From the NCBI GenBank assembly GCA_016490735.1, contig JAEMWC010001505.1, positions 81,577 to 145,576 on the forward strand: a DNA stretch of 64,000 nt. The letters run 5' to 3'. Below, piece after piece: positions 1-61,989 of the stretch; within the stretch, counting starts at the first letter, position 1, and the number at the start of each line of letters is the position of its first letter. The DNA comes from Pachyseris speciosa (Eukaryota; Cnidaria; Anthozoa; Scleractinia; Pachyseridae). A program made the translations under genes and the position numbers. The notes beneath the pieces are model-generated. The model saw nothing but the letters and a program-made list of their open reading frames with translations, made no database searches and was not told the DNA's origin.

Positions 1-202
1 TCTTAATGTCTGAACCTTTTCCTGATCTATTTGATTTGATCAGTTTATTGATTTGTCTCTTAGTCAACATTAGTTGATCATTTCCAGACAATTCACTATG
101 CGTCAACCTTATTGTTACAGGTGAATTTGTTGCATAAGCTTTTGCTAGCTTTTGTTTCTGACCTTGTGAAAGTGTCACTCCATGAGGATGATAAGTAGTC
201 AT
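1..202 (-). CDS. Short virion-type protein, partial (homologue at 53.4 kb)
   Basis: An ATG at 202 on the minus strand opens a frame that stays open to the left window edge (67 codons visible); the stop lies outside. The product starts MTTYHPHGVTLSQGQ and continues with LAKAYATNSPVTIRLTHSEL and a lysine-rich stretch with TKRQINKLIK. The same pattern occurs in element B (53,376-53,576: YHPFKLALTEGQ, then TATQINRL), which supports it as a conserved gene of this element family. In both elements it lies just downstream of the MCP on the same strand. Proteins of this kind are commonly found next to the capsid genes in cnidarian Polinton-type elements, so a structural or core-associated role is inferred. 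No enzymatic motif is visible. Confidence 0.55.
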   Translation of the reverse strand, partial: MTTYHPHGVTLSQGQKQKLAKAYATNSPVTIRLTHSELSGNDQLMLTKRQINKLIKSNRSGKGSDIK

Positions 203-235
203 ATAATATATGTTTATACTAAATTGTATTTAATA

Positions 236-308
236 CAAACAATCATTTAATTTAATTATTTAATTTATTTAATTTATTTAATTTATTTAATTTAATTAAT
301 TATTTAAT
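236..308. repeat. AT-only tandem repeat between two viral genes
   Basis: Imperfect repetition of a TTTAATTTA-type unit fills the gap between the start of the short virion-type gene (202) and the stop of the MCP gene (309). It contains almost no G or C. It could act as a promoter or transcript-end spacer, but could also be simple-sequence decay. Confidence 0.7.
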
Positions 309-1597
309 TTACATTGATCTCAGAATTAATTTTCCATCAGTCTTTCTCATCTCAATATCCTGCTCATACAGAACCAAAGCATACACACTGTAATCAGCAT
401 TTGTTGCCCCACTCAAAGTGTATTTGAAAGTCAGTTTTGTCATTCCATCTTTGATATCCTGTTTCTGTTTCGTCAAATCAAAATAAATGAAAGGGAATAT
501 TGTACCGAAGTTGCCCCTGTTAAGAAGGGTACTTTCACTGAAATCATTTACAGCTTGAACATATTTCAAAACATCTCTGAATACTCTTGTTGGTTCTGTT
601 GATGGTTTATAATGAACCTCTGGATAATCATTACCATTGCCAACCTCAAGATAACAATCAGTCAAAGTTTGGTTATTTGCAACTGAAAAAGGTGTTATAG
701 AGAAATTTATTGGCTGTCTGATCAGAATCAATTGGCATCATTGATGATGAATACAAAGACATGCCTGGGTTTGTTTATTCCTGTGGAAATACGGAAATTG
801 GCTGTCTGTTGTCTTGTTGAATTGCCTCTCTCAACCATTTCTCTCATGTAAGTCCACTTTCTGTTGTCAAGATACTTGCTCATGTATAAGGACTTTCCCC
901 AGAATTGAAAATAATACGAGGAACAATTAGCTGGAATTTAGTTAGTACCACACGACATTCATCAGTAGCCTGCCAAACCAAATTATCATCACTCTCAAGT
1001 GTAATATTCAGCTCTACTTTTGAGTTAGGCAAAAGTTCATCCCAAAACTTTTGAAAAACCGTATCTGTTCAATGCTAATTCTGCACCTACTTTACCATTT
1101 GCATCATTCAACAGTGCTTTACGAGCTGCGAACCCAGCGTTAAAAGTGGCCACCTGAGCTACCCTGTTATCAGCATTTCTGTTTGCGTCAAGATAGAAAA
1201 ACTCATTTGTCCCCTGGCTTGCTGCATAACCTTGCGAATACTCAAGCAAAGATTTGATATTTGTGGCTTGGTTGGCATCTCGGCATTCATAAACATCAAT
1301 ACCATTCATTTTCACATTTATGGTGTTTATGAGTGCATGAATTCCATTCACGATACCATTTCGATCTGCAGCAGCAATGTCAGCTCCATCTGCAAGCTTT
1401 TTTTCAATGAATTCAATATAACAACGGGCATTATACCAATCAAATGGTGTAGTCTCTCCACTGTTATCAACAACGAAACGGTAACCTGTTTTCCTCTGAT
1501 GAGCATCATTTGCTACTACAGTATTAAGTGCTGTCTCAAGCTCAAAGACAACATCTTCATATCGTTCGATATATTTTGAGTCGCGATAGTTTGACAT
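309..1597 (-). pseudogene. Major capsid protein (Polinton-type, double jelly-roll family), frameshifted
   Basis: The N-terminal piece (1597-1037, 186 residues) begins MSNYRDSKYIERYEDVVFEL and contains TPFDWYNARCYIEF, the DWYNA motif that element B also has (54.7 kb, DWYNAYFRVEY). The C-terminal piece (731-309) contains FPFIYFDLTKQ and ATNADYSVYALVL, matching YPVIYFDLRPTK and AATADYRLFVAVL of element B at 53.7-53.9 kb. The link between 1036 and 732 is readable only by switching frames; it includes the conserved PRIIFNS, and further on RHVFVFIINDA is recognisable. So one gene of roughly 430 codons has at least two indels. Role: capsid shell protein, assigned from length, position between the short virion-type gene and the penton gene, and the shared motifs with the other locus. 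The double-jelly-roll fold is family knowledge, not read from sequence. The start is preceded by a motif shared with another gene of the element (see findings). Confidence 0.7.
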
Positions 1598-1619
1598 ATA
1601 TTATTGTGTTAGATAAAAG

Positions 1620-1873
1620 TTACTTAATTTTACGAGGTCTGCCTCTCTTTCTTTTGATTAAACCACCAGTCTGGCTCACACTCTCAGTTCCACTCCTGTT
1701 TCCACTTTTTCTCTTTTTCAAAAGTTCTATGATTTTGTCACCAGCTTTTTTGCCAGCATGTTCACCAATTGTTGTGGCTGCTTTTTCAGCTGCTTTTTTC
1801 CAGCTGTTTTGATAATGTCAGTCATGACACCTTCACCATGTTGTTCATATTTTGTAAACTCAAACCGTTTCAT
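1620..1873 (-). pseudogene. Small basic AT-hook protein, frameshifted
   Basis: The ATG at 1873 opens MKRFEFTKYEQHGEGVMTD and a frame that breaks in an A-rich run near 1800. The adjacent frame continues with AATTIGEHAGKKAGDKIIEL and ends KRKRGRPRKIK with TAA at 1620-1622. KRGRPRK is a classical AT-hook core, so DNA binding in the particle is a fair inference. Element B has a counterpart at 54,950-55,287 with the same order (an aromatic/basic start, an Ala/Lys helix, then GGKKIRQLLQKRKQ). The gene sits between MCP and penton in both elements. The 254-nt length is not a multiple of three, consistent with one indel; sequencing error cannot be excluded. Confidence 0.6.
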
Positions 1874-1903
1874 ATACTATTAGGTTTTATAATTCCACAC
1901 CTC

Positions 1904-2311
1904 TCAAGAATAACTCAATATACAATCTATCCCGTTTAAATCGACTGGAGCTCTAGAAGAGTCTGTGACATAAAAGCGCATTGAGCTGATTGTATGTGTT
2001 GAGACAGGATTCCATGAAAGAAAACGAGGTTTGTAAGTGAAAGGTAAACTTCTAACGAGATCTGTGACTGGTATAACTGCGATTGTATTTGTGCTATTTC
2101 CATCAACAATGCTATCTATCACCATATCACAATTGATATAAATTTCATCTACTCCTCTTGTAATATCAGGTAGATTTGTTCCATATTCTGTGGCTGAAAC
2201 TAATTTTGAATCGAAACCGATAAGTTTTCTGAAATCAAGATTTCTCAGATCCACACGATAATTTTCATTGAGTTCAATCAAAATGCGATATGTTGACAAA
2301 ACGAAATACAT
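1904..2311 (-). CDS. Penton-like minor capsid protein
   Basis: Intact ORF of 135 residues. Key stretches are YRVDLRNLDFRKLIGFD, then NLPDITRGVDEIYINCDMV, and near the end MRFYVTDSSRAPVDLNG. Element B has the same series at 55,297-55,762: a LLSFGKK segment, RIPDITRSVDWAFLNCDLI, and RIRVTDGHNNILNLNDVDV. The PDIT-x-S/G-VD...NCD signature and the location directly upstream of the basic protein and MCP fit the penton (vertex) protein of Polinton-type elements, which forms a single jelly roll. The function is inferred from family knowledge and synteny. The start codon overlaps the end of the short ORF at 2278-2457. This is one of the few undamaged genes of element A. Confidence 0.6.
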   Translation of the reverse strand: MYFVLSTYRILIELNENYRVDLRNLDFRKLIGFDSKLVSATEYGTNLPDITRGVDEIYINCDMVIDSIVDGNSTNTIAVIPVTDLVRSLPFTYKPRFLSWNPVSTHTISSMRFYVTDSSRAPVDLNGIDCILSYS

Positions 2312-2457
2312 ATCAATATCTTCACAAACTCATTTCTTACACTCATACTGTTGTTACCAGAAAAAATAGACCCACCAAGTAACTGTAAACGTGAAAGCAA
2401 GTCACCAACATTATTATAATGAACAACACCTGCTCCATATTGTTTTCTCTTTCTCAT
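2278..2457 (-). CDS. 59-residue ORF: probable C-terminal part of the coiled-coil virion protein
   Basis: Starts at ATG 2457 with MRKRKQYGAGVVHYNN and ends with TGA at 2278-2280, overlapping the penton start. The stretch YGAGVVHYNNVGDLLSRL followed by RNEFVKIL resembles the C-terminal tail of proteins found between penton and ATPase in related elements. The DNA between here and 2581 holds shorter matching fragments in other frames. It is therefore best read as the detached 3' end of the gene at 2581-3090 rather than as an independent gene. Confidence 0.4.
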   Translation of the reverse strand: MRKRKQYGAGVVHYNNVGDLLSRLQLLGGSIFSGNNSMSVRNEFVKILICISFCQHIAF

Positions 2458-2580
2458 TCCTTGCCCTTTTTTGTATTTTAAGAAGCTAATACATCTGCAA
2501 TCGTTTCTCTATATTTCTCTTCAAAGTTTTCAATTCTTGATCATAAGATTCTTTATCTTCTGGTGTTTTTTGAACTTTTT

Positions 2581-3090
2581 TTAGGTCCAATCACAAAGGC
2601 GATTTCTGCAGCTTTTTTTCTTTTCTTCAAGAAGTTTTTGTGGGCTGACTTGAGTTAAATCATTTGGTTTCAAAAGCTTGTTATTTTTTAATATAATTCT
2701 GTCATTTTTATCGAAATTGTTATCGATCGCTAATATGTTGGGTGTCCAATCCTTATCTTTATCTTCTTTAGGTGCTTCAATGGCTTTAGGAAGTTCCTCA
2801 CCCATTACAATTGCTCTGCGATTAGCTTCAATAACATCATCAAGTCCTTGTGTTAAAGCCTGTTGATTTTGTTTCAACTGTTCAATTACTTTATCCTGTT
2901 TTTTGTCTACACTTTCTTTCACACTCTTCTGTACATCAATAGAAGGTTTTAGTAATTCTGATGTTGTATCATAAGCATCCTGTTTTCTATTTTCATAAGT
3001 CTTGATAACCTCATGAACTTCTCTAGTTTTATTTCCAGCTTCAATTCCACTTTTAAGAAGCCTTTTCATACGTTCTATATCCATATACAA
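2581..3090 (-). pseudogene. Coiled-coil virion-associated protein, 3' end frameshifted
   Basis: 169-residue frame starting MYMDIERMKRLLKSGIE, dominated by Lys, Glu and Gln heptads (for example VKESVDKKQDKVIEQLKQN) typical of a long helical coiled coil. It ends in KKKSCRNRLCDWT; the neighbouring frame continues with AEIAFVIGPKK, so the natural C-terminus has been lost through an indel near 2600 and probably continued to 2278. In element B the same slot, between penton and the divergent plus-strand genes, holds an acidic protein with a run of Glu (55,832-56,302). A scaffold or internal virion role is plausible but unproven. The intergenic space to the divergent ATPase start at 3121 is only 30 bp and probably holds both promoters. 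Confidence 0.5.
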
Positions 3091-3120
3091 TTGTGTTAGA
3101 CTAATCTAAACTATTAACAT

Positions 3121-3650
3121 ATGGAAATTCCAAATTATGATATCATTCAGAATTCAAATAATTCATTCAGACAGTTGTATCCGTATATGCCAAAAGATAC
3201 ATTTAGAATGTTATTGGCTGGTAATTCTGGATCTGGAAAGACAACATTGTTCATGCATCTGATTATGGAACCGTTGGTCTATTATGATTAGATACATCTT
3301 TATGCAAAAAATTTGGATCAAGACAAGTACAAATATCTTCGGAAAGTAATGGATGAAATAAGCAGTCACATTGGATATCCTGCCTTGGTTTGCAGTCAAG
3401 AAGAGATATTGCCAGTTGAACAAATAAAAGACACAGATTTGCAGCGATTGTTTGTTTTTGATGATTTTGTGACTGATAAAAACAAGATCAAATCATAAGC
3501 TATTTCATTCAAGGGAGACACAAAAACTGTTCTGTCATATATCTCACACAATCATTCTATGGCTGTCCAAAATCAATCAGACTCAATTGCAGTCACTTCT
3601 GCATTTATGATTATGACATTGAAAACAAAAAAATTAGTAATGTAGCAGAC
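3121..3650 (+). pseudogene. Genome-packaging ATPase (FtsK-HerA/A32 type), interrupted
   Basis: ATG at 3121. Walker A is explicit in LLAGNSGSGKTTLFMHL (about residues 37-53) and Walker B in RLFVFDDFV (coded near 3460). An in-frame TAG at 3289-3291 follows EPLVYYD, and TAA at 3496-3498 follows KNKIKS. After that the match shifts frame to YFIQGRHKNCSVIYLTQSFY and CPKSIRLNCSHFCIYD, the segment that follows Walker B in this family. At about 3620-3640 the ATPase reading runs directly into fibre-type repeat sequence (NKKISNVAD), so the 3' end is missing. Role: ATP-driven packaging of the element genome into capsids. Damage comprises one stop, one frameshift and a 3' deletion/fusion. It is the first gene of the plus-strand block. 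Confidence 0.75.
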
Positions 3651-4806
3651 CAACTTCTAACAAAGATGCTGTTAATATGAGATACGTCAACGATGCTGTT
3701 TTATCATTGAAGGAACACGTGTTAATCCATTTAAATTCTTCTTGAAGATATATCAAAAACAACTATTCTTAGAAATGCGAATAATCTACAATTAGAAGAC
3801 TATAATAAAAGCCCATACAATATCAATAAAAAATCATTGTCTTTGTGATTCCTGCTGCTGGTCTTACAACTGTTCTTCGTTTTAATCTGACACAATTGGA
3901 AGTTTCAAAGTACACTTTAGTTGTTGAGTTTTTATACAGATGGTAATCCAGATAATGCAACAGTTGATGATGAAAAGATTAGATAAAAAGAGCCTTTCCA
4001 AAAACTCAATCTTGTTGATGGTTATCTCAAAAGAATATTTCTTCCTTGAAAAAACAAGTCATGGTTCCACATCAATGGAGTTATTGTTGATTTCACCATA
4101 TTACAAAATAATAAAAACATTATGTTATAGTTTTATGGTGTTTATGGATTTTCTAATATCATTTTATCACATATTCATGCACCCAGCTTATGAAATTGAA
4201 AATGGTAATGTTGCTTTGGCGGTGAAATTGACATGAAAAATAATAGAATCATGAACCTTAATGACATTCCATCAGACCCATGATGCTGTCAACAGAAACT
4301 ATGTGAACATCAATTTTTTGATGTATATGGAACCAATAAAATGTCTGCAAACCTTGATGTTGATGACCATAAAATTATAAATCTTACGGCTCCAACTGAT
4401 GATAAAGATGCTGCTAACAAAAAATATGTTGATGATCATACCCCAAATATTGACATGTCTCCATATGTAAAAAAAGATGGAAGTGTTGCAATGACTGGTA
4501 ATCTGAGCATGAGTGGCAACAGAATCAGTGGTATACCATTCCCTAGTTCATCATCTCGAGTTAGTACTTATGATGCGGTTAATTTAGGTTACGTTTAAAC
4601 AAAATATGCGAAGAATCAGGACAAACACATTATTATTGGATGGAAGTAACCCGATGGCTGCTGATCTGGACATGGGTGACAACAAAATTACAAATGTAGC
4701 AGCGCCAACAGCAAACAATGATTCAGCCACAAAGGGTATGTTGATACTGAAATTGCTGGTATTGATGTTTCTCCATTTCTTAAAAAAGATGGAAGTGTTG
4801 CAATGA
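3640..4806 (+). pseudogene. Decayed 5' part of the tail-fibre-like gene
   Basis: A string of frames separated by stops and indels, all of fibre type. It opens with NKKISNVAD and a DAVNMRYVNDAV repeat (3640-3700). Then comes a first copy of the beta-rich module (3725-4205: FFLEDISKTTILRNANN, SPYNINKKSLSL), badly broken. It is followed by repeats such as IDMKNNRIMNLND (4230), LDVDDHKIINLTAPTDD with AANKKYVDD (4341-4440), KKDGSVAMTGNLSM (4470) and MAADLDMGDNKITNV (4650). Frame changes occur near 4600 and 4745. The unit pattern is hydrophobic-x-M-x-x-N/H-x-I-x-N-L, then Asp/Asn-rich, then D-A-x-x-K/N-x-x-V-D. It is continuous in design with the intact ORF that begins at 4803, so the ancestral gene was far longer than 818 codons. 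Confidence 0.65.
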
Positions 4807-7259
4807 CTGGAGATTTGGACATGGGACGGAATATTGTCAAAAACATGAAATATCCCGTTGATATATTAGACGCCACAAACAAGTCTTATGTTGACTCTCA
4901 AATCGCAAGCTGTCTGAAACGGGATGGAACAGACCCAGCTGAGGGCGATCTAGACATGGATGGGTACGCAATTCAAAATTTAAAAGATGTCGACAACAAC
5001 ACCCCCAGAAGCAGCGCAGTTAACAAAAAGTATGTTGATGACCTTGTTTTTTCAGCATCAGGTATTCAGCAAAACCCCTTCGCTTTTCTGTTAAAAGATA
5101 TATCCAAGTCTTCTATAGTTAGTGATGCAACAAACCCTCAAATTGAGAATTTTGACAGATCACCATATCACATGAATAAGTCCTCATTGTCTTTTATCAT
5201 TTCACATAGTGGTAACTTTACATCCAAAATTCGTTTTGATGTTTCATCCTTGAGTAATGGACAGTACACATTTGTTACTGAGTTTTACTCACCATCAGAC
5301 CCAAGAAGTGCAACAATCGATTTAACCCTTCCAACAATTAACATGCGCGATGCGGGACAGCCGTTTCAAAAACCTTTTCCCCAAACTCCACACGTTGATG
5401 GTTATATGAAGAAGCTTTTCCGAATCGAAAAAACCAGTGGTGGGCAAGCGGCAATACAGGTGGAACTTTCCAGCACAGCTCCTGCGTCTAACACCAAAAC
5501 ACATACCATCGTTTATGGGACCTATGGCTATCACACCAATTTGTCTTACTTTGTTCATGACCCACCTTATGAAATAGAAGAAGGAAGAATTGTATTTGAT
5601 CGTGAGCTTAAAATGAGTTTTCATACAATAGTCAATGTGGCACGCCCAATATTAGATGAGGATGCTGCAACTAAAAAATTCGTTGATGATGCTGTCATAC
5701 ATCTGTCGACACATAAAGCGGATAAAACATATGTTAATTCTAACTTTGTGAAAAAAGATGGAAGCGTTGCGATGACAGGAAATTTGTCAATGGGTGGAAA
5801 TAGAGTGACGAATTTAGCGGACCCGTCGAATGAAACTGATGCAGTGAACTTCAGAGTTTTAAATCGAGCTGGAATAGTTATTAGAGCAAACGCTTTATTA
5901 TTGAATGGAACAAACGCGATGGCAGCGGATATGAAACTTGGAGGGCATAAAATCATTAACTTAAAAGAAGGAACAAATAAAACCGATGCCGTAAATTTAG
6001 ATCAATTAGAAAAAAGTCATATTTCATCTGCTTCTCATCCAAAGAATGCTTTCAAATATTTGATGAATGATATCGATGAAATTAGCACTGAATATGGCTT
6101 GACAGTTAATGGATATGTCAATTTACCTCGTTCACCACATTTGATTTTAAAAAAGGTCATTGATGTAGACTTGAATAAAGAAGCTAATCATATTTACAGA
6201 GCTAGAATTGGATTTAACATGTACACAATAAAAGATGGAAAATACACATTTATTCTTGAATGGCTATTTCCTGATTATGAAGGAATGAATCTTAGTAGTG
6301 TAACATTCAATGCAACTGGTGGAATTACAATTCATAAAACTGTAGGGAGAAAATTTGACAACAGAAATGAAGATCATTCGAGATATTTATTATGGATTGA
6401 AAAACCATCAGCAAGTTCACCACCTGAATATTTATATTGTACGATTCATATTAATGCTAACCCAACTTATCCAAATAAGTACAAAGTTCATTGTGTTGCA
6501 TATGGTATTGATTTTGAAGCTGTAGACGTTCCATCAAGTGTTTACGACTTCACTGAAGCTTATAAAATCGTGAATGAAACAATACAATTACAAACTGATT
6601 TAGATTTGAATGGTTTTGATGTGAAAGAAAATGAAAATTGGTTGTTTGGTGGAGACAATGGTGAATTGACAATGCTAAATAATATTAATATGAACAGCTA
6701 TTTAATAAAAGAGGCTAAACTTGGTGGTGATTTAAATCTGAATGGCTATAGAATTCATAATAATAGTTTGAATCTATTTCGTTCAAGCGTTACAGGTGTA
6801 ATTATGGAAACAGCTTTCGATCTCGGAGGATTTGCGCTTTACAGGCCGAAATTAGGAGGTGATCTAAATTTGAATGGAAATGGAATAATCGGTCAAATAC
6901 AATATTTAAATTGCTTTGTCAAAGCCAAACAAGGACATTATAAGAATGTTTTAAAGCCTGTATTGATAAATGGCTCTGAATTTTTAGTCATTCACAACAA
7001 TAACTTTCATATTAAGAATATGTATGTAATACAAGGAACAAAACCCGGAATATTCTACTTCAAGAAAAAAGCTGAAGGCGCTGGAGTATTACCATTACCA
7101 TCAACAATTTTTGAATACAGACATGGTGCTGTGGGTAGAAACATCACAACGGTTGACGTCAATAAATCATTATCGAGAGGCTATCTTATAATTGACTATT
7201 CACATCCCAATAGTGGAGCATTTGATACAGCATTCACACTTGAAGTAATTATGAATTAA
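4803..7259 (+). CDS. Phage-tail-fibre-like repeat protein (virion fibre/receptor-binding candidate)
   Basis: Open frame of 818 residues; it lacks its N-terminal part, which is decayed upstream. Fibre repeats of about 30-40 residues occur near residues 3-80, 263-400 and 595-700, for example MTGNLSMGGNRVTNLADP followed by NETDAVNFRVL. They resemble repeats in trimeric bacteriophage tail fibres. Two copies of an unclassified beta-rich module of about 180 residues interrupt them, at about 90-263 (starting NPFAFLLKDISKSS) and 410-590 (starting NAFKYLMNDIDEIS). Each has a G-Q/K-Y-T-F-V/I-x-E core and a late A/V-YG element. The last 120 residues form a distinct C-terminal beta-rich domain ending in AFTLEVIMN. 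Element B keeps the C-terminal half (58,191-59,022). No signal peptide or membrane segment is seen. The inferred role is a host-attachment fibre. The gene ends 17 bp before the collagen-like gene. Confidence 0.65.
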   Translation: MTGDLDMGRNIVKNMKYPVDILDATNKSYVDSQIASCLKRDGTDPAEGDLDMDGYAIQNLKDVDNNTPRSSAVNKKYVDDLVFSASGIQQNPFAFLLKDISKSSIVSDATNPQIENFDRSPYHMNKSSLSFIISHSGNFTSKIRFDVSSLSNGQYTFVTEFYSPSDPRSATIDLTLPTINMRDAGQPFQKPFPQTPHVDGYMKKLFRIEKTSGGQAAIQVELSSTAPASNTKTHTIVYGTYGYHTNLSYFVHDPPYEIEEGRIVFDRELKMSFHTIVNVARPILDEDAATKKFVDDAVIHLSTHKADKTYVNSNFVKKDGSVAMTGNLSMGGNRVTNLADPSNETDAVNFRVLNRAGIVIRANALLLNGTNAMAADMKLGGHKIINLKEGTNKTDAVNLDQLEKSHISSASHPKNAFKYLMNDIDEISTEYGLTVNGYVNLPRSPHLILKKVIDVDLNKEANHIYRARIGFNMYTIKDGKYTFILEWLFPDYEGMNLSSVTFNATGGITIHKTVGRKFDNRNEDHSRYLLWIEKPSASSPPEYLYCTIHINANPTYPNKYKVHCVAYGIDFEAVDVPSSVYDFTEAYKIVNETIQLQTDLDLNGFDVKENENWLFGGDNGELTMLNNINMNSYLIKEAKLGGDLNLNGYRIHNNSLNLFRSSVTGVIMETAFDLGGFALYRPKLGGDLNLNGNGIIGQIQYLNCFVKAKQGHYKNVLKPVLINGSEFLVIHNNNFHIKNMYVIQGTKPGIFYFKKKAEGAGVLPLPSTIFEYRHGAVGRNITTVDVNKSLSRGYLIIDYSHPNSGAFDTAFTLEVIMN

Positions 7260-7276
7260 TCTAAATTAATATTATA

Positions 7277-8282
7277 ATGGGAGTTTTTAATTCTCCACAA
7301 AATCAAGATAATAAAGGTGATAAAGGCGATACTGGTGCAATTGGTCCTAAAGGTAAGAGAGGTGATAAAGGAATTGGTTTTACATTAACACAAGATGGTC
7401 ACTATGATCTTGGAAACAAACATTTGACTAATGTAAAAGCAGGCAATGATTCTGATCATGTTGTAATCAAATCACAAGTTTCAGATATTGTCAGAGATAG
7501 TTTTTTGGATTTATGGGTTTCTGAATTCATCAGATTATACTCTAAATGTACTTATCAAATCGACAGAGCGAATAATAATTTTTTAGATATGAATGCAGAC
7601 AGAAAAGTTGAAACATTATACGATCTATCAAATGAAGAAAATGATGCAACTCAATCAACTTTAAACATAAAGACCCACTGTTTGTACCAAGGCTGAGAAA
7701 CTTAATGGACGTTATTTTTTGAAGTTTGATGGATCACAGAGAATGATAAGTCAAATCAATTTAAATAATAATGCTGTCAATATCTTCATTGTTCATAAAT
7801 TAAATTCAAATACAGGTGGAAATCCATGGAAAAATGGACTTTTTGGTCATGACGATGGAGGTTATGATAAGTTTGTCAGCTATTACAATGGTTCAAATTT
7901 AGCAATAAGTGGTGTTGATGAAAAGAATTGTGTGTATTTCGGTCCTGATGCTTCCATACAGAACTTCAGAAAGATATCAGATTATTCCTCAAATGACTTG
8001 GGGCAGATCAATGTTTGGCACTGCTTGTCCGTTCACTGGGATAATTTATCTTCTCCAAATACCAATACCAGCAAGATCTATTGGAATGGAAAACATATGG
8101 CAGATTATACAGCGGCTAACAGAACTGGTAGCACACAAATGACTTTCGGTGATTTGAATCCAAGCTCCATAGCACCATTGGATGGTTGTATTATTTTTTT
8201 CTGTGTTTACTTGGATTCTACATTAGACGAAAAAACAATTTTGGATCATCATAGCGTTTTAATGCAACGATATAATATATGA
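7277..8282 (+). pseudogene. Collagen-like plus LamG/concanavalin-like adhesin, one frameshift
   Basis: ATG at 7277. Residues 10-35 are Gly-x-x triplets (KGDKGDTGAIGPKGKRGDKG), a short collagen-like stalk, followed by a fibre-type repeat (YDLGNKHLTNVKAGND). A helical linker leads to the frame break near 7670 in an A-rich run. The next frame (to 8282) contains LNGRYFLKFDGSQRM, VNIFIVHKLNS, GQINVWHCLSVHWD and TSKIYWNGKHMADYT, the beta-strand pattern of a concanavalin A-like/laminin-G domain. Such domains bind glycans or glycoproteins, so a second attachment protein is inferred. Its TGA overlaps the next start (ATGATAG at 8279). The gene is absent from element B, so it is an accessory of element A. 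A sequencing error could explain the single indel. Confidence 0.6.
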
Positions 8283-8701
8283 TAGAAGAAGCAATCAAAT
8301 ATGTTGAATTCTTTTTTGATGAAACAAAACAACAATTTATTCAAGTCGATGATGCAATTTTAAAATCAGCTTTGGTATACCAATATCTGTATCACAAGCA
8401 TTTTAATGTAAAAATTTCAATGAACAATATTTTAAATACTCACAAGGATATTGGACTTATTGGTCCTGGAAATGGGTGCTTGACATATTTCTTGGAATAT
8501 ACACTTGGATGGATTGAAACATTACAAACACATGGTATACTTCATGATGCGTATGGAAGATTTTATAACAGTTATTCCTTAGACCGTGGATATAGTTATG
8601 CTATACCTAAGTACCTTACACCAAAGCGAAGAAAAAGATCTCCATTATGTGGCCAGATCTCTGGAATACTTTATTGCATATTCAAGAGAATAGTTATATA
8701 A
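8279..8701 (+). CDS. Unrecognised element-A protein
   Basis: 140-residue frame starting MIEEAIKYVEFFFDETKQQF; its ATG overlaps the stop of the preceding gene, indicating a tight polycistronic-style packing. The middle contains GLIGPGNGCLTYFLEYTLGW and YSYAIPKYLTP. From about 8628 an alternative frame reads more protein-like (EEKDLHYVARSLEYFIAYS, stop near 8690), so the annotated C-terminus after LTPK is probably a frameshift artefact. It looks soluble and globular with many aromatic residues. No signal peptide or known catalytic motif is seen. It has no counterpart in element B, where the fibre is followed directly by the two-helix membrane protein. Confidence 0.45.
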   Translation: MIEEAIKYVEFFFDETKQQFIQVDDAILKSALVYQYLYHKHFNVKISMNNILNTHKDIGLIGPGNGCLTYFLEYTLGWIETLQTHGILHDAYGRFYNSYSLDRGYSYAIPKYLTPKRRKRSPLCGQISGILYCIFKRIVI

Positions 8702-8710
8702 AATATATGT

Positions 8711-9196
8711 ATGAAAGAGCGAAAAAGCATATTCAGCTGGAACCATATTTCAGGTGAATTAACAGAAGATCAGGTAAATGAATTAAAATCCTATTACCGA
8801 ACATATCACAGAAAGTATTGGGCTCATAAACAGGCTGTTAAACGGTTCAAAAAATGGAAATTACTGGGGAATTCCTTGTCCATCATCTTTGCAACTGGGG
8901 GTCTCGCCACAAGTGTGGCAACAGGTGGTGTTAGTTTGGTAGCCATCAGTACAGCAGCACTTTTGATACAAGGGTGGATGAAGCATAAAAACCTAGATTT
9001 GAAAATCCAAAATTGCACATATGCTTATCAAAGCTATCAACATCTACTCAATTCAATAAAAGACAAGTTGAGAAGTGGTGATTTTGATGCTTCAAGTATA
9101 CAAATCTCAATGAAGAATATCGATGATTATGTGACTGACAATAGTCCAATTATTGTTAAGTACCTACAGAAATATGATGAAAAATTCACTGCTTGA
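8711..9196 (+). CDS. Conserved two-helix membrane protein
   Basis: 161 residues, intact. Residues 1-60 are polar and basic (SYYRTYHRKYWAHKQAVKRF). Residues about 57-95 form a Gly/Ala-rich hydrophobic hairpin (IFATGGLATSVATGGVSLVA then STAALLIQGW), and the C-terminal 65 residues form a charged helix ending YLQKYDEKF. Element B at 59,070-59,545 keeps the same architecture with little identity (FYAFYHKKHWGY, SAVAGGITLNPIVFATLTAFG, LAKYAKRF), so selection has maintained the fold. SLATT-like and holin-like proteins have comparable hairpins, but I cannot place it in either family. Possible roles are membrane remodelling, inner-membrane anchoring or entry. The 3' end overlaps the stop of the convergent gene by about 10 bp. 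Confidence 0.55.
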   Translation: MKERKSIFSWNHISGELTEDQVNELKSYYRTYHRKYWAHKQAVKRFKKWKLLGNSLSIIFATGGLATSVATGGVSLVAISTAALLIQGWMKHKNLDLKIQNCTYAYQSYQHLLNSIKDKLRSGDFDASSIQISMKNIDDYVTDNSPIIVKYLQKYDEKFTA

Positions 9197-9749
9197 TAAT
9201 ACGAATAATCTTATCAAATCTCAACAATAGAATCTCAATCCAATATCGATCATAAAATCCAAGCGTCTTTTTTGATCTAGTAACTATTATTTTATCAAAT
9301 GGAAGATCAAGCATTAAAAATATTTGCTTAAGCATAAATTTAGTGCTAATCATTCTTTTTCGATTCTTATTTACCAAAGGGAGGATAGTGTCTATCTCTT
9401 CGAATATTTTCAATATTTTTCCCTTATCTTTTACTGAAATTTGAAATCTATTCTTGCGACATATACCATTTATCACATTTTCAATATGGTATTTCCGATG
9501 ATACACAGATTTCCGCTTTATTTTATACATATTATCATGAAAGTCAACAAACTCTTTACAATAATCATAACCATGAACTGAACCACAATTTAGACAAACA
9601 TTTTCACCATCATCGTTAAACATTTTCTGATTATCACAGCAAGGTGCTTTCACACTTTTAACAACTTTGACCAATAGCTGATCACAAAAATAACATGACA
9701 ATTCTCCCATATTTTTCAATTCATTGTGAATTACTGAATTACAACTCAT
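9186..9749 (-). CDS. Zinc-ribbon late-transcription-factor-like protein (VLTF3/TFIIB-type)
   Basis: 187 residues, intact. An N-terminal Cys pair (SCYFCDQLL) is followed by a zinc ribbon, PCCDNQKMF...VCLNCGSVHGYDYC. Next comes YKIKRKSVYHRKYHIENVI, a basic/aromatic stretch seen in viral late transcription factor 3-like proteins. The C-terminal half is basic and helical with FYDRYWIEILLLRFDK. A zinc-ribbon gene occupies the same convergent position in element B (59,802-60,077, CCGET...CQSCQRVEEL). The likely role is recognition of late promoters. A general TFIIB-like ribbon protein is the alternative. The gene is expressed from the right end of the element, opposite to the fibre operon, and is the last element gene before host DNA. 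Confidence 0.6.
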   Translation of the reverse strand: MSCNSVIHNELKNMGELSCYFCDQLLVKVVKSVKAPCCDNQKMFNDDGENVCLNCGSVHGYDYCKEFVDFHDNMYKIKRKSVYHRKYHIENVINGICRKNRFQISVKDKGKILKIFEEIDTILPLVNKNRKRMISTKFMLKQIFLMLDLPFDKIIVTRSKKTLGFYDRYWIEILLLRFDKIIRIIKQ

Positions 9750-9779
9750 TTCTATACTATTATATGAGATTTTATTTTT

Positions 9780-10300
9780 ATGTAACCATCGGATGGTTCC
9801 ACGTGAGAAATAATAGCTATAGGTGATGACTCATTCCCTGTTTTCCGAGAATGTCACGCTTGGTGATTTTTCCGAGAATGTCACGCATTTTAAAATAACT
9901 ATAAATTCCAAAATACGAGATCATTTTGCTAAAACACCCCCCTAAATTAATTTATGTGCTGAAACCCCCAAACACTATACTACTGACGAGCCGCTTCTTG
10001 CATAACCCTTTTTCTTTTTTCCTCGTCGTTTCGTCCGTCACTTGCCCCTTACCCCTCTCGGCCAGAGGAAGAAACAATGACAAGTAAATAAATAAATTAT
10101 TTAATCTCTGACTTGGAACGCACGACCCTCAGATCTCAACGCCCATAGTATCCCATTTTCACCAATGGGTTTGCCACTCATTGTCTCTGCGTGCTTAAGT
10201 TATGGGAAATCCGATTTTGTGGTGACAGTGAGCGACTTCACCAGACAGAGGTGTCAAACTGTTGTGCTACGTCGCCGATGGGAGGAAGGTGGGTAAAAAT
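9780..10300. other. Gap at the element A / host boundary
   Basis: No convincing gene. A 19-bp direct repeat (TTTTCCGAGAATGTCACGC) occurs twice within 9838-9887. The rest is low-coding sequence with a poly(AAAT)-like patch near 10,085. The change from AT-rich coding to host-like DNA happens at the left end of this interval; no TIR or 6-bp target duplication could be recognised. Confidence 0.5.
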
Positions 10301-10316
10301 TCTAATGACCTACCGG

Positions 10317-52848: not shown

Positions 52849-53579
52849 TTTTCTCCCCCCGCCCCATCATCGGGCATTCCCAGTCTTCCCACCGGCCAAA
52901 GAAGGGCGGAGGGCGCATTTGCATGCCGCTTCCTTGTGTTGATATAGGCAGCGCCGGAAGGTGGGGAGGTGCAGAACGCCTCGACCGTGACGGCTGCAAG
53001 TGTGTTCCGCTCCCCAACATCTGTTGGACAGGGCTTATGGGAAGAAGGACGCCGATGGAAGCCAGCATGCCAAGAAACCCACCGTATTGCGCGGTCCCAC
53101 CTCCACGAACCAAGCCCTTGCCGACAAGATATTTCTCAATAGTTTTATTTTGGTTGGGGGAAAGCATTTGCACGAGTTTTTACAACTGCACCTCTTGGGG
53201 CCGAAGCCGTTTCCGAAAACCTTTTTCAAAACCTTTCCCGCGTCGAAGCTGAGTCCCGCCGCCATTCCCAAAGCTTTTCCCACAGAGGGGACGAGAGCGG
53301 GGCCCAGACTGGGCGCTGCGGACAAGAGGTTGCCGCCTCGCTGAAAAGTTTTGGACATCTGCATCTTGCTTATCGTCACATCCGCACCATGGCCAGCGCT
53401 GGCGGCCTTTTCAGTCGGTTTATTTGCGTGGCGGTCAACAAAAGATCGTTGCCCTTCCCAATCTGTTCCGGCTTGACATGCAGAATCACAGCCGCCCTTT
53501 CTTTCGCCGCCTTCAGGAGGCTGTATCTTTGGCCCTCTGTCAGAGCGAGCTTGAACGGGTGATACACCATCGGCATCTT
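52814..53579 (-). pseudogene. Short virion-type protein, frameshifted (homologue of 1-202)
   Basis: The first frame 53,576-53,376 (MVYHPFKLALTEGQRYSLLK, TATQINRLKRPP) matches the element A gene. A second frame (53,379-53,035) adds KMQMSKTFQRGGNLL and Ala/Gly-rich LGMAAGLSFDAGKVLKKVFG. A third (53,173-52,814) ends with MLSPNQNKTIEKYLVGKG, PPPFFGRWEDWE and basic residues. So the gene is longer than what is visible for element A and has two shifts. Hydrophobic Gly/Ala middle and basic tail fit a core or membrane-associated virion protein. Confidence 0.5.
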
Positions 53580-53641
53580 ATATCAAAGAACAAAAATTTA
53601 CAGGGAGAAACATCGTTCGGAGAATACGCTCGAAGAGCAAA

Positions 53642-54993
53642 TCAGACAACAAACAACTCGTTGCCAATCTGTTGTATGACGACCTCTTCCTCGTTCAGGA
53701 CGGCAACGAACAGGCGGTAATCCGCCGTTGCGGCCCGGTTCAAGCGGTAGTGCAAAACCAGCTTCTTCTCATCCCCAGCCATGCTCTCCTTTGTCGGCCG
53801 GAGATCGAAATAGATGACGGGGTAAAGCGTCAAGTATTTGGCCACATTCAGCTGGGTCCCGGTGTTGACATCATTTCTCCTGTAGCTGTAGTCAATCAGG
53901 TCTCGGCGTATTCGGATTTGGTCTTCCCCATCGTACTCCAGCTTAGGATAAAAGTCGACCCGTACTGAAGGCGGCAAGTTGAAAGTTTCGCCCCACCATC
54001 GAGAGCGAAGGTGTGGAAGACGATGGGGTTCGTTGTGGCCGCATTCAGGTTTGCCACCTTTTGAATGAAAATGAACGCATGCTTCGCATTCTTGACCCCT
54101 GGGTTTATCAACCATTGCCCACCAGCGCCCCGGCGGTCGGCGCCGGTATCAGCGTCTCCTTCATGTAGCGCCATTGGGTGGGTTTCAGAAAGCTTTCATT
54201 CACGATCTTCTGTCCCTCAGGTGCAAACATCTACTTCGAGACCTACAACTCGAACAGCTTGACGACGATCCGGTGGTTGGCGGTGGCAGCGCCCCCGAAA
54301 AGCATATCATTGTCGTTCTGCAGCTTTATTTCGAACTGAAGCTGCATCTGGGGGAGGAGTTTGTCAGACAACTCCTCGAAGAATGAATAGCTTTTGAGAG
54401 GGATTATCGTTTTGACCGTTTTTTGCGGTTCTTCTTTCGAAAGAAGCCCACGCGCTCTGATCCTGAGGCTGGTTGCGTCGTCCCCAGTCGCAGTCGTGTT
54501 GTCATTGTCAAAATACCACAACTCATCTTTTGCCACACTTTGCTCGTAGTCATCGGAGAATTCCAACAGGTTTTTGATGAAAACGACTTTGTGAACGTCG
54601 TTGGCTTCGTTAAGGGATTTTCTGGCGGATTTCACCTTCAAGTCCTGTATGAGGGAGAAAGGAGCCGTTGACCGGCGCAGAGTCAACATTGGCGACCACG
54701 TGAGCCCCGTCGGCCTTTACCTGCAGCTCGTACTCCACCCGAAAATAAGCGTTGTACCAGTCAAGAATGACGTCTCGGTCTTTCACATCTATAACCAACC
54801 CTCCTTTGGTTTGTTCCTGCCCATTTCCCGGCAACGTGAGCGGGCTGTTCAGTTGAAATTTGAGGTAGTCCACCTTGTCAAGCAAGCGGGGCGCTCTGAA
54901 CATCGCTGTATACACAGCCAAAAACTTTTTATGCTCCAAGGCAGAAGTTTTAAAGTTGGTTAGCCAAAATTTGGCTGACTTGAACCATCGCAT
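53642..54993 (-). pseudogene. Major capsid protein, heavily frameshifted
   Basis: Start probably MRWFKSAKFWLTNFKTS at 54,993. N-terminal frame: PRLLDKVDYLKFQL, VILDWYNAYFRVEYELQV. Next frame (54,689-54,243): ARKSLNEANDVHKVVFIKNL, LPQMQLQFEIKLQNDND, ANHRIVVKLFEL. Next: GQKIVNESFLKPTQWRYM (about 54,190) and AGGQWLINPGVKNAKHAFIF. Last frame (to 53,642): DGEDQIRIRRDLIDYSY, TLYPVIYFDLRP, ATADYRLFVAVLNEEEVV. Segment order equals that of element A. At least four frame changes. Capsid function by family and synteny. Confidence 0.7.
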
Positions 54994-55287
54994 CCATTTT
55001 TCGGTGTGGGATGGTGGGCGTTGGACGCCCATTGGGGGCTTGCTTGCGTTTTTGCAACAGTTGACGTATTTTTTTGCCGCCGCTCTCAGTCAGTGCCTGG
55101 GTCCCCTTTTCGGTTGCCTTTGTGGCTGCTTGCATTGCGGCCCTTTTCAAAACCGGCGCGGCTGCCTTTCTGAGTTGTTTGCCAATGGCCATGAGGGTAT
55201 CGCGAACACACCCGACCCCTTGTGTTTGAAGCGGAACCGGCCGACACGGGGGTCATAAAATTTCATCCACTCACTCGGGCGATTCAT
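54950..55287 (-). pseudogene. Small basic protein, frameshifted (homologue of 1620-1873)
   Basis: ATG at 55,287: MNRPSEWMKFYDPRVGRF, then a shift near 55,200 to MAIGKQLRKAAAPVLKRAAM, QAATKATEKGTQALTESGG and KKIRQLLQKRKQAPNGRP. Very rich in Lys and Ala, without the AT-hook of element A. It overlaps the MCP start. DNA condensation is an inference. Confidence 0.5.
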
Positions 55288-55296
55288 GCTCTATAA

Positions 55297-55762
55297 TCAT
55301 GCAGAAATTTCACGGATCATGAGATGCACAGCTACGTCCACGTCGTTGAGGTTGAGGATGTTGTTGTGCCCGTCTGTGACCCGGATCCTCACCGCGCCGA
55401 TTCGCGATCTGTTGACCGGGTGAGACTTTGGGCGGAGGGGCTCCTTTGTGAAAGGGGCCGACCTCGAGGTTGGCCGTGGAGAAGGTGAACAAATCAGCAC
55501 TTGGTATGTTGTTGGCTCGCCCCGTGATCAGGTCGCAGTTTAGGAACGCCCAGTCGACGCTCCGCGTAATGTCGGGGATCCTGTCCCCCGTGAAAGTCGT
55601 GGCGTCTTTCAGAAGCTTTTTGCCAAAGCTTAGCAGTTTCCCAAAGTCGCCAGTCGTGAGGTCAAGTTCATACCCAGTGGCCACCCCAATCACAACCTGG
55701 GTGATGGCGTAATCGAAGTACAGGTTGAAGACGTGTTTCGTTTCCGCCGCGGTGGGGTACAC
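55297..55762 (-). pseudogene. Penton-like protein, frameshifted at the 3' side
   Basis: Frame 55,762-55,470 holds VFNLYFDYAITQVVIGVATG, YELDLTTGDFGKLLSFGKK, DRIPDITRSVDWAFLNCDLI and LEVGPFHKGAPP. After a shift near 55,440 the adjacent frame (55,297-55,500) ends VRIRVTDGHNNILNLNDVDV. The signature D-I-T-R-S/G-V-D...N-C-D is shared with 1904-2311. One indel separates an otherwise complete protein of about 150 residues. Confidence 0.6.
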
Positions 55763-55831
55763 AAAATCATTTGTGGTGGGTCGGGCTTATGTTTCTTTCG
55801 GGGGAGTTCGTTTCAACCCCCTTTTCCCTTC

Positions 55832-58125: not shown

Positions 58126-58190
58126 CCTCGTTGTGACTGGTTTTAAAAGCTTTTCGGCCTCAAGTTAGCCAAACTCCTTCGCGATTTTGT

Positions 58191-59022
58191 TTGTTAGCGC
58201 TGCCGAAAGGGTATTCCACGTTCGTGGTTGAGTACTTTCCGCCGGAAATGACAAACGTGTCCGTAAGAGCAAGCGCAACCATCGCGACAATCACGAGCCA
58301 AACCATGCGAACCTTCAGCAGCTACACAAAAACCCTCGTTCTGTTCCACCGGTGGAGTGACGCCACTCCCAACTACATTTACCTGGATCTGCACGGCTCA
58401 ACATCTGGCTCAACCACGGGCCACCTGGTGGTTTATGGGGTTTCTGGGTACACTTCCAGCGTGGATTCGAGTGTTTTTGACACGCTTTAGACTGTCGACG
58501 GTGGAATGATGACCATGGAAGCTCCTTTGAACATGAATGAAAAGCTTCTCGTAGCGCCAAAACTGGGAACCGACTTGGATTTGAATAACAAAAAGGTTCG
58601 CAGCGGCCCCTTGGATCTGTTTCGCGGGAGTGTCGTTCTTGGCGGAATGGTAATGGGGTCCTCCCTGGAGCTGGTGGGTTTCCCTTGTTTCTACCGAAGC
58701 TGGGTGAAGATTTGTATTTGAATGGCAAATATGTAATCGATGAAAATGTGGCAATCAATCTTCCTCAATTTTGGTCACCCTTTACTTCATCCAAATATGT
58801 AAGCAGAGTTGAGTTGGAAGGTTTCAGATTGATGTTGTATGTGGAAGTCTCTCTCGCAAGCATGTTTCAACCTCCGTCCCACACAGCTTGGATTCGCACA
58901 CGTGGGCTTATGATAAAACAATTCAGTTACTAAATAGTTTCTCTTCAATCACATTCAAATTCCAAGGCTTGAGCAACACACTGGGTGAACACTCCGTGCT
59001 TGAAGTCGATTTTGTGGCATGA
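58191..59022 (+). pseudogene. Fibre gene, 3' half only
   Basis: Begins inside a beta-rich module: KGYSTFVVEYFPPEMTN, then TTGHLVVYGVSGYTSSV, matching the G-x-Y-T-F-V-x-E core and A/V-YG element of element A. TAG at about 58,490; then MTMEAPLNMNEKLLVAP, KLGTDLDLNNKKVRSGPLDL, VVLGGMVMGSSLELVGF, and after a shift KLGEDLYLNGKYVIDENVAI. It ends SITFKFQGLSNTLGEHSV with TGA at 59,020-59,022. The 5' part with the tandem repeats is missing, deleted at the 25-bp repeat (58,208-58,232). Confidence 0.6.
58208..58232 (+). repeat. 25-bp exact direct repeat, copy 2
   Basis: The fibre-gene copy, coding the core of the beta-rich module. The 2.2 kb between the two copies contains the insert and no ATPase or fibre 5' half. 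Confidence 0.8.
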
Positions 59023-59069
59023 AAAATTTTCCTTCTTGATACCATGGCCGATTTTTACCCAAGCTCTGT

Positions 59070-59545
59070 ATGTTCGACTTCAACCACATCGACCCTCCCT
59101 TAAACGGGGCACCGTCGAGATGTTGAAAAAGTTTTACGCTTTCTACCACAAGAAACATTGGGGCTACGACGAACTTTTTCACAGCTTTCAAAAACTAAAC
59201 CTGTTTCGCAATGTTGTGGCGGGAAAGGCCATCATCTCTTCCGCGGTTGCGGGGGGCATCACCTTGAACCCAATTGTGTTTGCAACTTTGACTGCTTTCG
59301 GCCTTGTGGTCAAAGGTGTGGCAAGCTTCAAAAAATACGACAAAAAGGCTGAGAGGGTCATCTTCGCCCGGGTCGAATACAAAAAAATTCTGGACGCAAT
59401 CCGCTTCCATCTCAGGGGGGAGCCTTTCGATGAAAAAGCATTTCTCGACAAGCTAAAAATTGTTGACGACTTCGTCAGCGACCACTACATGGAGATCCCC
59501 GAAGAAATCCTGGCGAAATACGCCAAACGTTTCGTAGCGGAGTAA
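59070..59545 (+). pseudogene. Two-helix membrane protein, one frameshift (homologue of 8711-9196)
   Basis: The start MFDFNHIDPPLNGAP is in one frame (59,070); the rest is in another: MLKKFYAFYHKKHWGYDELF, SAVAGGITLNPIVFATLTAF (hydrophobic hairpin), RAREVYKK-type charged helix, and EILAKYAKRFVAE at the stop, 59,545. Architecture and position (between fibre and zinc ribbon) match element A. The collagen/LamG and unknown genes that separate these genes in A are absent here. Confidence 0.55.
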
Positions 59546-60092: not shown

Positions 60093-61989
60093 ATGAAAAA
60101 AAAACCCTGCCTTGAAGCAGCAAACGCCTGCCTTGCAGAAACGCCTTTCGAAAATTTACTACAGCCCGAAAGGCTACTGGAAAGGGTTTGCCGCAGTGAA
60201 AAAACTGACCCAGGCCACAAAGGTTTCGGAAAATATGGGGAAACAGTGGTTGCAGAAGCAGGCACTTTGGCAGATGTTTCTTCCCGCGCCGCGGCATGTT
60301 CCTCGCTCGAAGTTTGACGTGCCAACACCCAACGCGGTGCACCAAGCCGACCTGCTCTTGATGCTGCACGACAAGGTGGGGCGCAAAACTTTCAAACACG
60401 TGCTGACTGTGCTCGACGTGACCAGCCGCTTCAATGCAGCTGAGCCCCTGACCTTGAAAAATTCTGCCGAAGTGGCCCGGGCCTTTGCAAAGATTTACAA
60501 GCGCGGGCCTCTCAAATGGCCAAAGCTGCTGCAGGTGGACCCAGGACAGGAGTTCATGGGGGCTGTTTCTAGAGTCATGGAGAAGCATGGAACAAGCATT
60601 CGCTGTGGACATGTGGAAGTGCACCGCGACCAGGCGATTGTGGAATGCTTCAACCGCGCTTGCCGAGCGTCTGTTCGGGCGCTAGTACGCTGTCGAAATG
60701 CGGCTGCCAGAGGGTGTGCGATCTGTTGTATAATAATAATAATAATAATAATAAATAATAATAATGACAGCATTTATTTAATCACGATTAAAAGTTCAGC
60801 AAAGCTGATGTGGTCGTGTACAATAAATTCAACCTCCAACCTCCTAAACTAATCACAATAAAACTAATATAAGAATTCCACGTTTTTACAAGATATGTGG
60901 CTAAAAAATACTCTTGAGTGACTTTTTAAAAACGTCAATCTCGCAAATTGATCTCATTTGGTATTCCAGGGCATTCCACCGAATAATTGACTTGTATGAA
61001 CATGATTTCTTTATCATATCAGTCCTAGGCCTGGGTAACTTGAAGGTCATTTTCCTCCTGAAATCGTAGTTCATAGGACATTTTTACATGGGTAAAAGAT
61101 GATAATAAGCCTGATGCGCTAAATTAATAATCGTTTCTCATACATAGTCTCCAAGGTATTCCATTTTGCTGCGGCAAGAACCTCCTTGCTTGGCGTACAC
61201 CAATCTAAGTTAAATATTATTTTTGCCGCTCTGACATGTATGGATTCCAGGTTTGAGAAAAACGTTTGACCACAAGAGCCCCAAACCGACATACCATACG
61301 TAACAGAGGGCAGAATAACCCCAAAATAGAAATCAGTTCTCGCCTGTCTAGGCAGGAAGTACAGTGATTAAGTAAGTTCAGCTTCTGCGTAAACGACTTC
61401 GCTAGTTCCGATACATGATGATCCCATTTAAGAGCGTTGTCTATCTGGACACCTAAGCATCTTGTAGAAACCACCTCCTCGATAACATAATCACCCATCA
61501 TAATAGCTTGCTTTGGCCCAGTCAGCTGCCCGCGTCCACTGAGCAGCATATATTCCGTCTTGGTAGGATGGGGGGTGAGACAGTTCTCACAACACCATGT
61601 GTGGGTGGCAAGGCTTTCCAGGGTTGTTGCTGCTCTCAAAAACCAAACCACGCGGCTGACAGGGTTGGAACCCACAGACGCGATCCGAAAACAATCCGTT
61701 TTCGCACTAGCAGCAACTCCATATTCCAGGCCTGTTGGTGCGGCCGAAAAAACCCTCCCCCTTGGCGTGAAAGTTCGCTATCTTTTTAAACCTGGGGAGT
61801 TGGAAGGTGGTGTGAGAAGGGCCACAGATCCTGTTTCGTCTTTGAAAACTTTCACACTTGAAAGGACAATGATCAAACCAAACCAAACTGTTATGTATTG
61901 GCTCTCCGATGGCCAAAACGTAGCTTCGTGCGCGAAGAGTTGATGGTTGTTCCCCCAATACCGAGTTGCCCCCTGTCAGGCCAGGCTAA
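60093..61989 (+). pseudogene. Retroviral-type (DDE) integrase, split by a LINE
   Basis: The first part 60,093-60,729: KIYYSPKGYWKG (N-terminal region), KFDVPTPNAVHQADLL with the first Asp, TVLDVTSRFNAAEPLT, KLLQVDPGQEFMGAV with the second Asp, and VHRDQAIVECFNRA with the Glu. A frame change and a stop at about 60,685 follow. The second part 61,601-61,989: VARLSRVVAALKNQTTRLTG, TPYSRPVG, LPLGVKVRYLFKPGELEGG, then frame changes through VREELMVVPP to the TAA at 61,987-61,989. D-D-E spacing and order are those of Polinton integrases. The A9 run near 60,096 is a probable start-site indel. The gene ends at the convergent polymerase stop. Confidence 0.75.
60730..61600 (-). mobile_element. 5'-truncated LINE inside the integrase gene
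   Basis: On the minus strand the fragment reads HTWCCENCLTPHPTKTEYML, VVSTRCLGVQIDNALKWDH and ELAKSFTQKLNLL, the RT C-terminal region of CR1/L2-type LINEs. It ends at a TAA/ATA tail at 60,730-60,766. TGT precedes the insert and ends it (60,727-60,729 and 61,598-61,600), compatible with a short target duplication. Removing 60,730-61,600 leaves the two integrase halves in the same reading frame. Confidence 0.8.

What the first reader, a model, noticed from the sequence alone, without database searches (positions are those of the whole stretch)
3640..7259. Phage-tail-fibre-like repeats in a eukaryotic virus-like element
At least ten repeats of the type MTGNLSMGGNRVTNLADP plus DAVN/K...V-D are present, interrupted by three copies of an unclassified module of about 180 residues and closed by a distinct C-terminal domain. 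The ancestral gene was well over 1,000 codons, the largest of the element. Such repeats are best known from bacteriophage fibres; here they would make an animal-virus attachment fibre.
Basis: partly seen in the sequence, partly recalled or inferred. Interest (0 to 1): 0.75.

Follow-up and report, generated by a model that had tools for sequence, protein, structure and literature searches.

The report
Phage-like attachment fibre in animal Polintons
A decayed virus-like element in what looks like an animal genome carries a long fibre gene built like a bacteriophage tail fibre, with swappable tip domains, which suggests that such elements once made particles that attached to cells.

Summary
Region 3606-7259 (+) carries ten repeats of the tail-fibre/YadA-neck type, three copies of a ~175-residue module (the first decayed) and a C-terminal domain unmatched among 120 listed relatives. 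An HMM made from three repeats of another protein finds such repeats only here in the window; Pfam YadA_stalk passes its cut-off. The gene is broken: its 5' part is frameshifted, and its N-terminus is missing where an ATPase remnant runs into it.

The neighbourhood is viral: a full-length relative of a neighbouring gene models as a penton-type minor capsid protein. A second polinton-like element at 53-63.5 kb carries part of the same module, a collinear capsid cassette and an integrase remnant.

Phage-like fibres in protist polinton-like viruses are published (PMC12220804, passages). This family is a new variant. Trimerisation, receptor and host species are untested.

The parts
2..229 (-). small unclassified piece at the left edge; has a counterpart in element 2
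   Evidence: blastp to 53379-53582, E 3.2e-7
312..737 (-). putative major-capsid piece (assignment by position and eye)
   Evidence: blastp to 53645-54148, E 1.3e-14; no Pfam match at E<=0.1; only antibody light chains at E>=0.37 in the PDB
883..1600 (-). putative major-capsid pieces (883-1068 and 1040-1600, different frames)
   Evidence: blastp to 54246-55089, best E 1.2e-6; PDB phmmer gave only ankyrin/DARPin look-alikes over a short stretch
1907..2329 (-). penton-type minor capsid gene, C-terminal piece
   Evidence: 93 relatives; model of the 226-aa relative P0126 resembles penton bases and minor capsid proteins; blastp to 55313-55786, E 2.2e-11
3118..3616 (+). packaging-ATPase remnant (A32/FtsK type) in several pieces with stops
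   Evidence: Pfam Pox_A32: 3118-3288 E 2.5e-4, 21.0 bits (below cut-off 22.8); 3480-3680 E 3e-5, 24.1 bits (above); the middle piece 3292-3495 had no match
3606..3721 (+). remnant of the fibre's N-terminal hub and first neck repeat, frame-broken, joined to the ATPase remnant
   Evidence: hub HMM E 0.0081 and 0.021; tblastn E 0.003
3735..4236 (+). module copy 1, decayed
   Evidence: module HMM E 0.046 and 0.00075; tblastn
4221..5051 (+). neck repeats 2-7 (first ones frame-broken)
   Evidence: repeat HMM, tblastn
5049..5567 (+). module copy 2
   Evidence: module HMM domain E 5.4e-21
5604..6014 (+). neck repeats 8-10; the last carries the neck motif that passes the YadA_stalk cut-off
6021..6554 (+). 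module copy 3, intact, CBM-like beta-sandwich in the model
   Evidence: module HMM domain E 3.2e-56; model with block pLDDT mostly about 80-94; fold comparison
6603..6900 (+). degenerate half-repeats after the last module, shared with element 2
   Evidence: 41.8% identity over 67 residues to 58491-58718, E 1.2e-10
6903..7259 (+). C-terminal head domain, unclassified
   Evidence: no match among 120 listed relatives
7277..7501 (+). second fibre-type gene: hub with short collagen-like stretch
   Evidence: hub HMM E 3.8e-16; Pfam Collagen E 0.022, below cut-off
7671..8279 (+). second fibre-type gene: LamG-like head, in a different frame from 7277-7693
   Evidence: matches residues 647-846 of the module-bearing relative P0073, E 9e-33; Pfam Laminin_G_3 E 0.01, below cut-off
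8711..9193 (+). putative two-transmembrane protein
   Evidence: SLATT_1 E 3e-4, below cut-off; blastp to 58973-59542, E 1.2e-17
9189..9749 (-). VLTF3-like late transcription factor
   Evidence: Pfam Pox_VLTF3 E 1.9e-5, 24.9 bits against cut-off 25
53379..55786 (-). element 2: counterparts of the left-edge piece, putative major-capsid pieces and penton-type piece, same order and strand
58182..58930 (+). element 2: fibre remnant with the second half of the module (HMM 67-174) and the post-module tail
   Evidence: module HMM E 4.6e-26; blastp
58973..59542 (+). element 2: counterpart of the two-transmembrane protein
60100..60852 (+). element 2: integrase remnant
   Evidence: Pfam rve E 4.2e-6, 27.4 bits, below cut-off 32.6; PHROG transposase E 2.3e-5

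Best explanation
The region is the remnant of an attachment-fibre gene of a polinton-like virus integrated in what is probably an animal genome. Shown by sequence: neck-type repeats as in phage tail fibres and trimeric adhesins, interleaved with a family-specific module and ended by a variable head, beside packaging and penton-type genes. Inferred: three chains trimerise through the hub and the neck repeats to form a rod anchored at the penton vertices; the beta-sandwich module(s) bind glycans or act as spacers; the exchangeable terminal head decides the receptor. This copy is dead: its N-terminus is missing, its 5' part is frameshifted and the neighbouring ATPase has stops. Intact open frames of the family exist elsewhere.
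Against: The window's own ORF has no tblastn match in 50,697 phage records at 1e-5. Neck repeats have low confidence in the single-chain model (blocks 40-74); no trimer was modelled. Foldseek gave no PDB match at E<=0.001 for the module, and BFVD matches have low TM-scores and include sobemo- and luteo-like virus proteins, so the sandwich may be generic. The PDB match list for the repeats also holds two designed Pizza proteins at E 0.044 and 0.087. Element 2 shows no repeats or hub. The major capsid assignment rests on position and eye. Penton rows with full coverage have rmsd around 9 A.
Confidence: 0.8

Rival explanations
1. The gene is a host adhesin or lectin that the element captured or that merely lies beside it, not a virion fibre.
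For: The host is probably an animal (a MACPF exon at 35739-36587), and animals have many modular lectins. LamG-like and collagen-like stretches occur (below cut-offs).
Against: The module recurs in a second element of the window beside penton-type, 2TM and integrase remnants in the same order; the repeats match phage tail-fibre families; the frame 4722-7259 has no introns.
Confidence: 0.07
2. It is a virion fibre, but the stalk and modules are only spacers that set reach; attachment lies solely in the C-terminal head or in the second fibre gene.
For: Heads vary while modules stay alike; no binding residue of a CBM was tested; the beta-sandwich fold alone shows no function.
Against: The best-scoring solved folds are mostly carbohydrate-binding modules, and the module is nearly universal among the listed relatives (119 of 120).
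Confidence: 0.35
3. Bacterial or phage DNA contaminating the assembly.
For: Repeats of this type are typical of phages.
Against: The element has poxvirus-type ATPase and VLTF3-like genes, lies in the same 64 kb as a MACPF exon and a second such element; the module was not found in phage records above noise (best row E 4), nor with P0033 in the GTDB genomes; many relatives lie on contigs of up to 3.7 Mb.
Confidence: 0.02

Closest known systems
Bacteriophage-like fibre proteins of protist polinton-like viruses (PMC12220804; passages seen)
   Same: Long modular fibres with collagen-like, LamG_3 and phage-tail-repeat parts, proposed to sit on the penton; one YadA head domain reported in a single PLV.
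   Different: In the passages seen, architectures often end in a Peptidase_S74 chaperone, which Pfam did not find here; no neck-repeat/module/hub family of this kind appears in those passages; here the element is probably in an animal.
Tail fibre of Synechococcus phage S-B28 and relatives
   Same: Three repeats of the same type; best phage match of relative P0050, E 4e-17; fold match to BFVD entry of that protein, E 2.8e-5.
   Different: The module HMM does not match it; it belongs to a tailed phage.
Trimeric autotransporter adhesins (YadA, BadA, SadA necks)
   Same: Neck motif: Pfam YadA_stalk 36.6 bits against 28.4; BadA 3d9x aligned over 53-108 with E 0.0029.
   Different: No YadA anchor or head domain reported by Pfam at E<=0.1; viral gene neighbourhood.
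Adenovirus fibre and penton base
   Different: No adenovirus fibre shaft or knob family matched the ORF (Pfam).
Family 22/27/4 carbohydrate-binding modules
   Different: 4-10% sequence identity in those rows; no Pfam CBM match; ligand unknown.

Membership tests
Phage-type tail-fibre repeat / YadA neck (PF05662) | profile match above the curated cut-off | tested here: met
   36.6 bits against 28.4, residues 383-403 of the ORF
Phage-type tail-fibre repeat / YadA neck (PF05662) | trimeric assembly | not testable with these tools
   only single-chain models are offered; stalk confidence was low
Trimeric autotransporter adhesin | C-terminal YadA membrane anchor | tested here: not met
   Pfam scan of the open frame lists YadA_stalk and Phage_T7_tail only
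Polinton / polinton-like virus | A32/FtsK-type packaging ATPase | tested here: met
   Pox_A32 24.1 bits against 22.8 for 3480-3680; remnant in pieces
Polinton / polinton-like virus | penton-type single jelly-roll protein | tested here: met
   on the relative P0126 (73% identical to the window piece); moderate model (pLDDT 63.5)
Polinton / polinton-like virus | double jelly-roll major capsid protein | tested here: inconclusive
   pieces without family match; assigned by position
Polinton / polinton-like virus | retrovirus-type integrase | tested here: inconclusive
   element 2 only: rve 27.4 bits, below cut-off 32.6, PHROG transposase 2.3e-5; none seen for element 1, which runs off the window
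Polinton / polinton-like virus | protein-primed DNA polymerase B | tested here: inconclusive
   element 2 pieces at 61986-63538 look like PolB by eye (motifs recalled), but Pfam, PDB and PHROGs gave no support
Polinton / polinton-like virus | terminal inverted repeats | tested here: inconclusive
   only short, mostly AT-rich or imperfect pairs within 1-14000; left end outside the window
Polinton / polinton-like virus | adenovirus-type protease | not tested
   no dedicated search; none appeared in the Pfam scans of the pieces given
Carbohydrate-binding module (CBM22/27/4 type) | fold | tested here: inconclusive
Carbohydrate-binding module (CBM22/27/4 type) | binding-site aromatic residues and glycan binding | not tested

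The most novel reading that the evidence does not exclude
Polinton-like viruses of animals carry a dedicated receptor-binding system that evolves as phage tail fibres do: a conserved collagen-hub and neck-repeat shaft with a family-specific glycan-binding sandwich, onto which unrelated heads are swapped. That pattern implies selection on attachment and hence a real extracellular, infectious stage of these elements.
Probability: 0.5. Interest if true: 0.8.

Novelty: new variant of a known kind. Interest (0 to 1): 0.6.

Why it matters
Whether animal Polintons/Mavericks make infectious particles is an old open question (PMC8097293 and PMC4028283 argue for it from capsid genes; abstract in a search listing, and passages). 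A fibre family with a conserved shaft and exchanged heads is what a virus under receptor selection would show, and it offers single domains that can be tested for glycan binding and trimerisation without any virus. It also joins phage tail fibres, bacterial adhesin necks and eukaryotic jelly-roll viruses by one stalk repeat.

Tried and rejected

Collections: IMG/VR scans with the window ORF, P0016, the putative capsid piece and the penton alignment confirmed no relative. P0050 gave two IMG/VR contigs through its repeats only; they show repeats (E 6e-8) and a hub-HMM match (9e-7) but no module above noise (best E 0.63); their hosts were not determined. The single-query GTDB scan with P0033 confirmed none; it finds close relatives only. 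tblastn of the window ORF against phages: no match at 1e-5. tblastn of module 3 against phages at E<=10: one row, E 4. P0050 matched 48 phage records; in the 15 listed the query range ends at residue 419, before its module (595-793); 33 were not listed.

Linking fibres to capsids by equal contig lengths: compared by eye, no shared length; uninformative, since only the longest contig of each cluster is shown.

Module-only protein search gave 3 proteins among 2,663 candidates; all three carry the module. The search works from short exact words, so it says little about spread.

A second repeat HMM failed (0 units); its printed rows are stale copies of the hub rows and are not used. Putative capsid pieces against the PDB gave ankyrin/DARPin and antibody rows only, judged compositional. 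Fibre 2 head against the PDB: none at E<=1. Shuffled control for the element comparison gave 1 row at E<=0.01, and one of its 12 real rows (330-599 against 53555-53965, plus strand) is antisense to the capsid pieces and was not counted.
Full report
What is there. The open frame 4722-7259 (+, 845 codons stop to stop; 818 from the ATG at 4803) is the intact 3' part of a longer coding remnant. Upstream, 3606-4803 continues in at least eight short overlapping pieces in changing frames. An HMM built from three repeats of P0001, a relative without the module, finds eight repeats in 4314-6014 with domain E of 0.045 or better and a weak ninth at 3644-3709; over all 3,190 six-frame pieces of the window the only other row is E 0.66, and the best of five shuffles reached E 0.21. 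A tenth copy at about 4221-4330 is cut by frame changes. The repeats are interleaved with three modules of about 175 residues (copies at 3735-4236 decayed, 5049-5567, 6021-6554). Copies 2 and 3 share 23% identity over 162 columns, E 6e-10. The remnant ends in degenerate half-repeats and a C-terminal domain.

What the repeats are. Pfam YadA_stalk matches with 36.6 bits against a cut-off of 28.4. PHROGs lists 20 families for the ORF at E<=0.1, led by tail fibre phrog_2710 at 7.7e-17. In the PDB the best match for the last repeats is the neck of BadA (3d9x, E 0.0029), then SadA (0.033), phage tail fibre gp9 (0.096) and a cyanophage fibre (0.15); two designed Pizza proteins stand among them at 0.044 and 0.087. 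The relative P0050 matches 48 phage records, the best an annotated tail fibre of Synechococcus phage S-B28. The window's own ORF had no tblastn match at 1e-5. That necks and such fibres are trimers is established knowledge, recalled, not tested here.

The family. Protein search found 1,014 proteins at E<=0.001 among 7,995 scored candidates; 120 are listed, at 24-37% local identity. Of these 119 carry the module, each once (the HMM was built from 116 of these segments), so the window's three copies are unusual. All 119 have at least one repeat hit (median 5). 101 of 120 start with the hub: a short N-terminal peptide (MG.FN / MS..N), a collagen-like stretch and GFKLT..GNYD...KKLTNV. The remnant of that hub is what lies at 3606-3721. 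No organism names are given; contigs reach 3.7 Mb. By contrast the penton-type piece has relatives at up to 80% identity. Fibre fragments under about 450 residues could not appear, so this contrast is only suggestive of fast fibre evolution.

Head exchange. Among the 119, 102 have at least 60 residues beyond module end plus 40; single-linkage blastp sorts these heads into eight clusters (71, 17, 8, 2 and four singletons). P0016 and P0018 are 68.7% identical over 700 columns, with 89.6% identical modules, but similarity stops about 42 residues after the module; the same holds for P0030/P0120 (modules 87%), P0016/P0019 (89%) and P0015/P0053 (80%). The window's second fibre-type gene begins with the hub (E 3.8e-16) and its head (7671-8279) matches the head of the module-bearing P0073 at 9e-33, so heads also move between fibre types.

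A second element. At 53379-59542 the same cassette recurs in the same order and orientation: left-edge piece, putative capsid pieces, penton-type piece, fibre remnant, 2TM protein (12 blastp rows at E<=0.01 between 218 and 1,405 pieces, one of them antisense and set aside; shuffled control 1 row). The fibre remnant holds module positions 67-174 (E 4.6e-26) and the same post-module tail (42% over 67 residues), followed by an integrase remnant (rve, below cut-off). No hub or repeats were detected there. This independent copy ties the module to capsid-type genes within the window itself.

How it most likely works. Inferred: the hub docks on the penton, collagen-like and neck segments hold three chains in register, the sandwiches give lateral glycan contacts, the head recognises the receptor. 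Only the sequence anatomy, neighbours and head exchange are shown here. The FN near the hub's start recalls the penton-binding peptide of adenovirus fibres; this is from memory and untested.

What is known. PMC12220804 (passages) reports bacteriophage-like fibre proteins in protist polinton-like viruses, with collagen, LamG_3 and phage-tail repeats, and one YadA head domain in one element; it cites endogenous PLVs in stony corals, a paper I did not see. PMC4028283 (passages) describes major and minor jelly-roll capsid proteins in Polintons. PMC11071296 (passages), PMC11071308 (passages) and PMC5294986 (passages) give context; PMC10328495 held none of the fibre terms sought. In ten searches of the held open library I saw no description of this hub/neck/module family in animal elements; subscription papers are mostly not held. 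Verdict: real, virus-associated, a new variant of a known kind.

Noticed in passing
window 53379-63538: A second polinton-like element with capsid-type, fibre, 2TM and integrase remnants; pieces at 61986-63538 (-) look like a protein-primed PolB by eye but found no family support.
   Followed up: partly
window 3606-7259: Decay is uneven: at least eight frame-changing pieces in 3606-4803, none in 4722-7259. Two copies of different age may have recombined, or the 5' stretch may hold assembly errors.
   Followed up: no
window 3118-3616 and 3606-3721: The ATPase remnant runs directly into the middle of the fibre hub, as a deletion would leave it.
   Followed up: partly
window 9189-9749: VLTF3-like gene with an apparent zinc ribbon next to polinton-type genes, an association usually linked to giant viruses.
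   Followed up: partly
window 35739-36587: MACPF-domain exon (Pfam E 2.9e-15), probably a host gene.
   Followed up: partly
relatives against window: All module-bearing relatives listed have one module, whereas the window gene has three.
   Followed up: partly
L001 and L002: Two IMG/VR contigs encode a repeat-rich 631-residue frame that also matches the hub HMM (E about 9e-7) without the module; origin not determined.
   Followed up: partly
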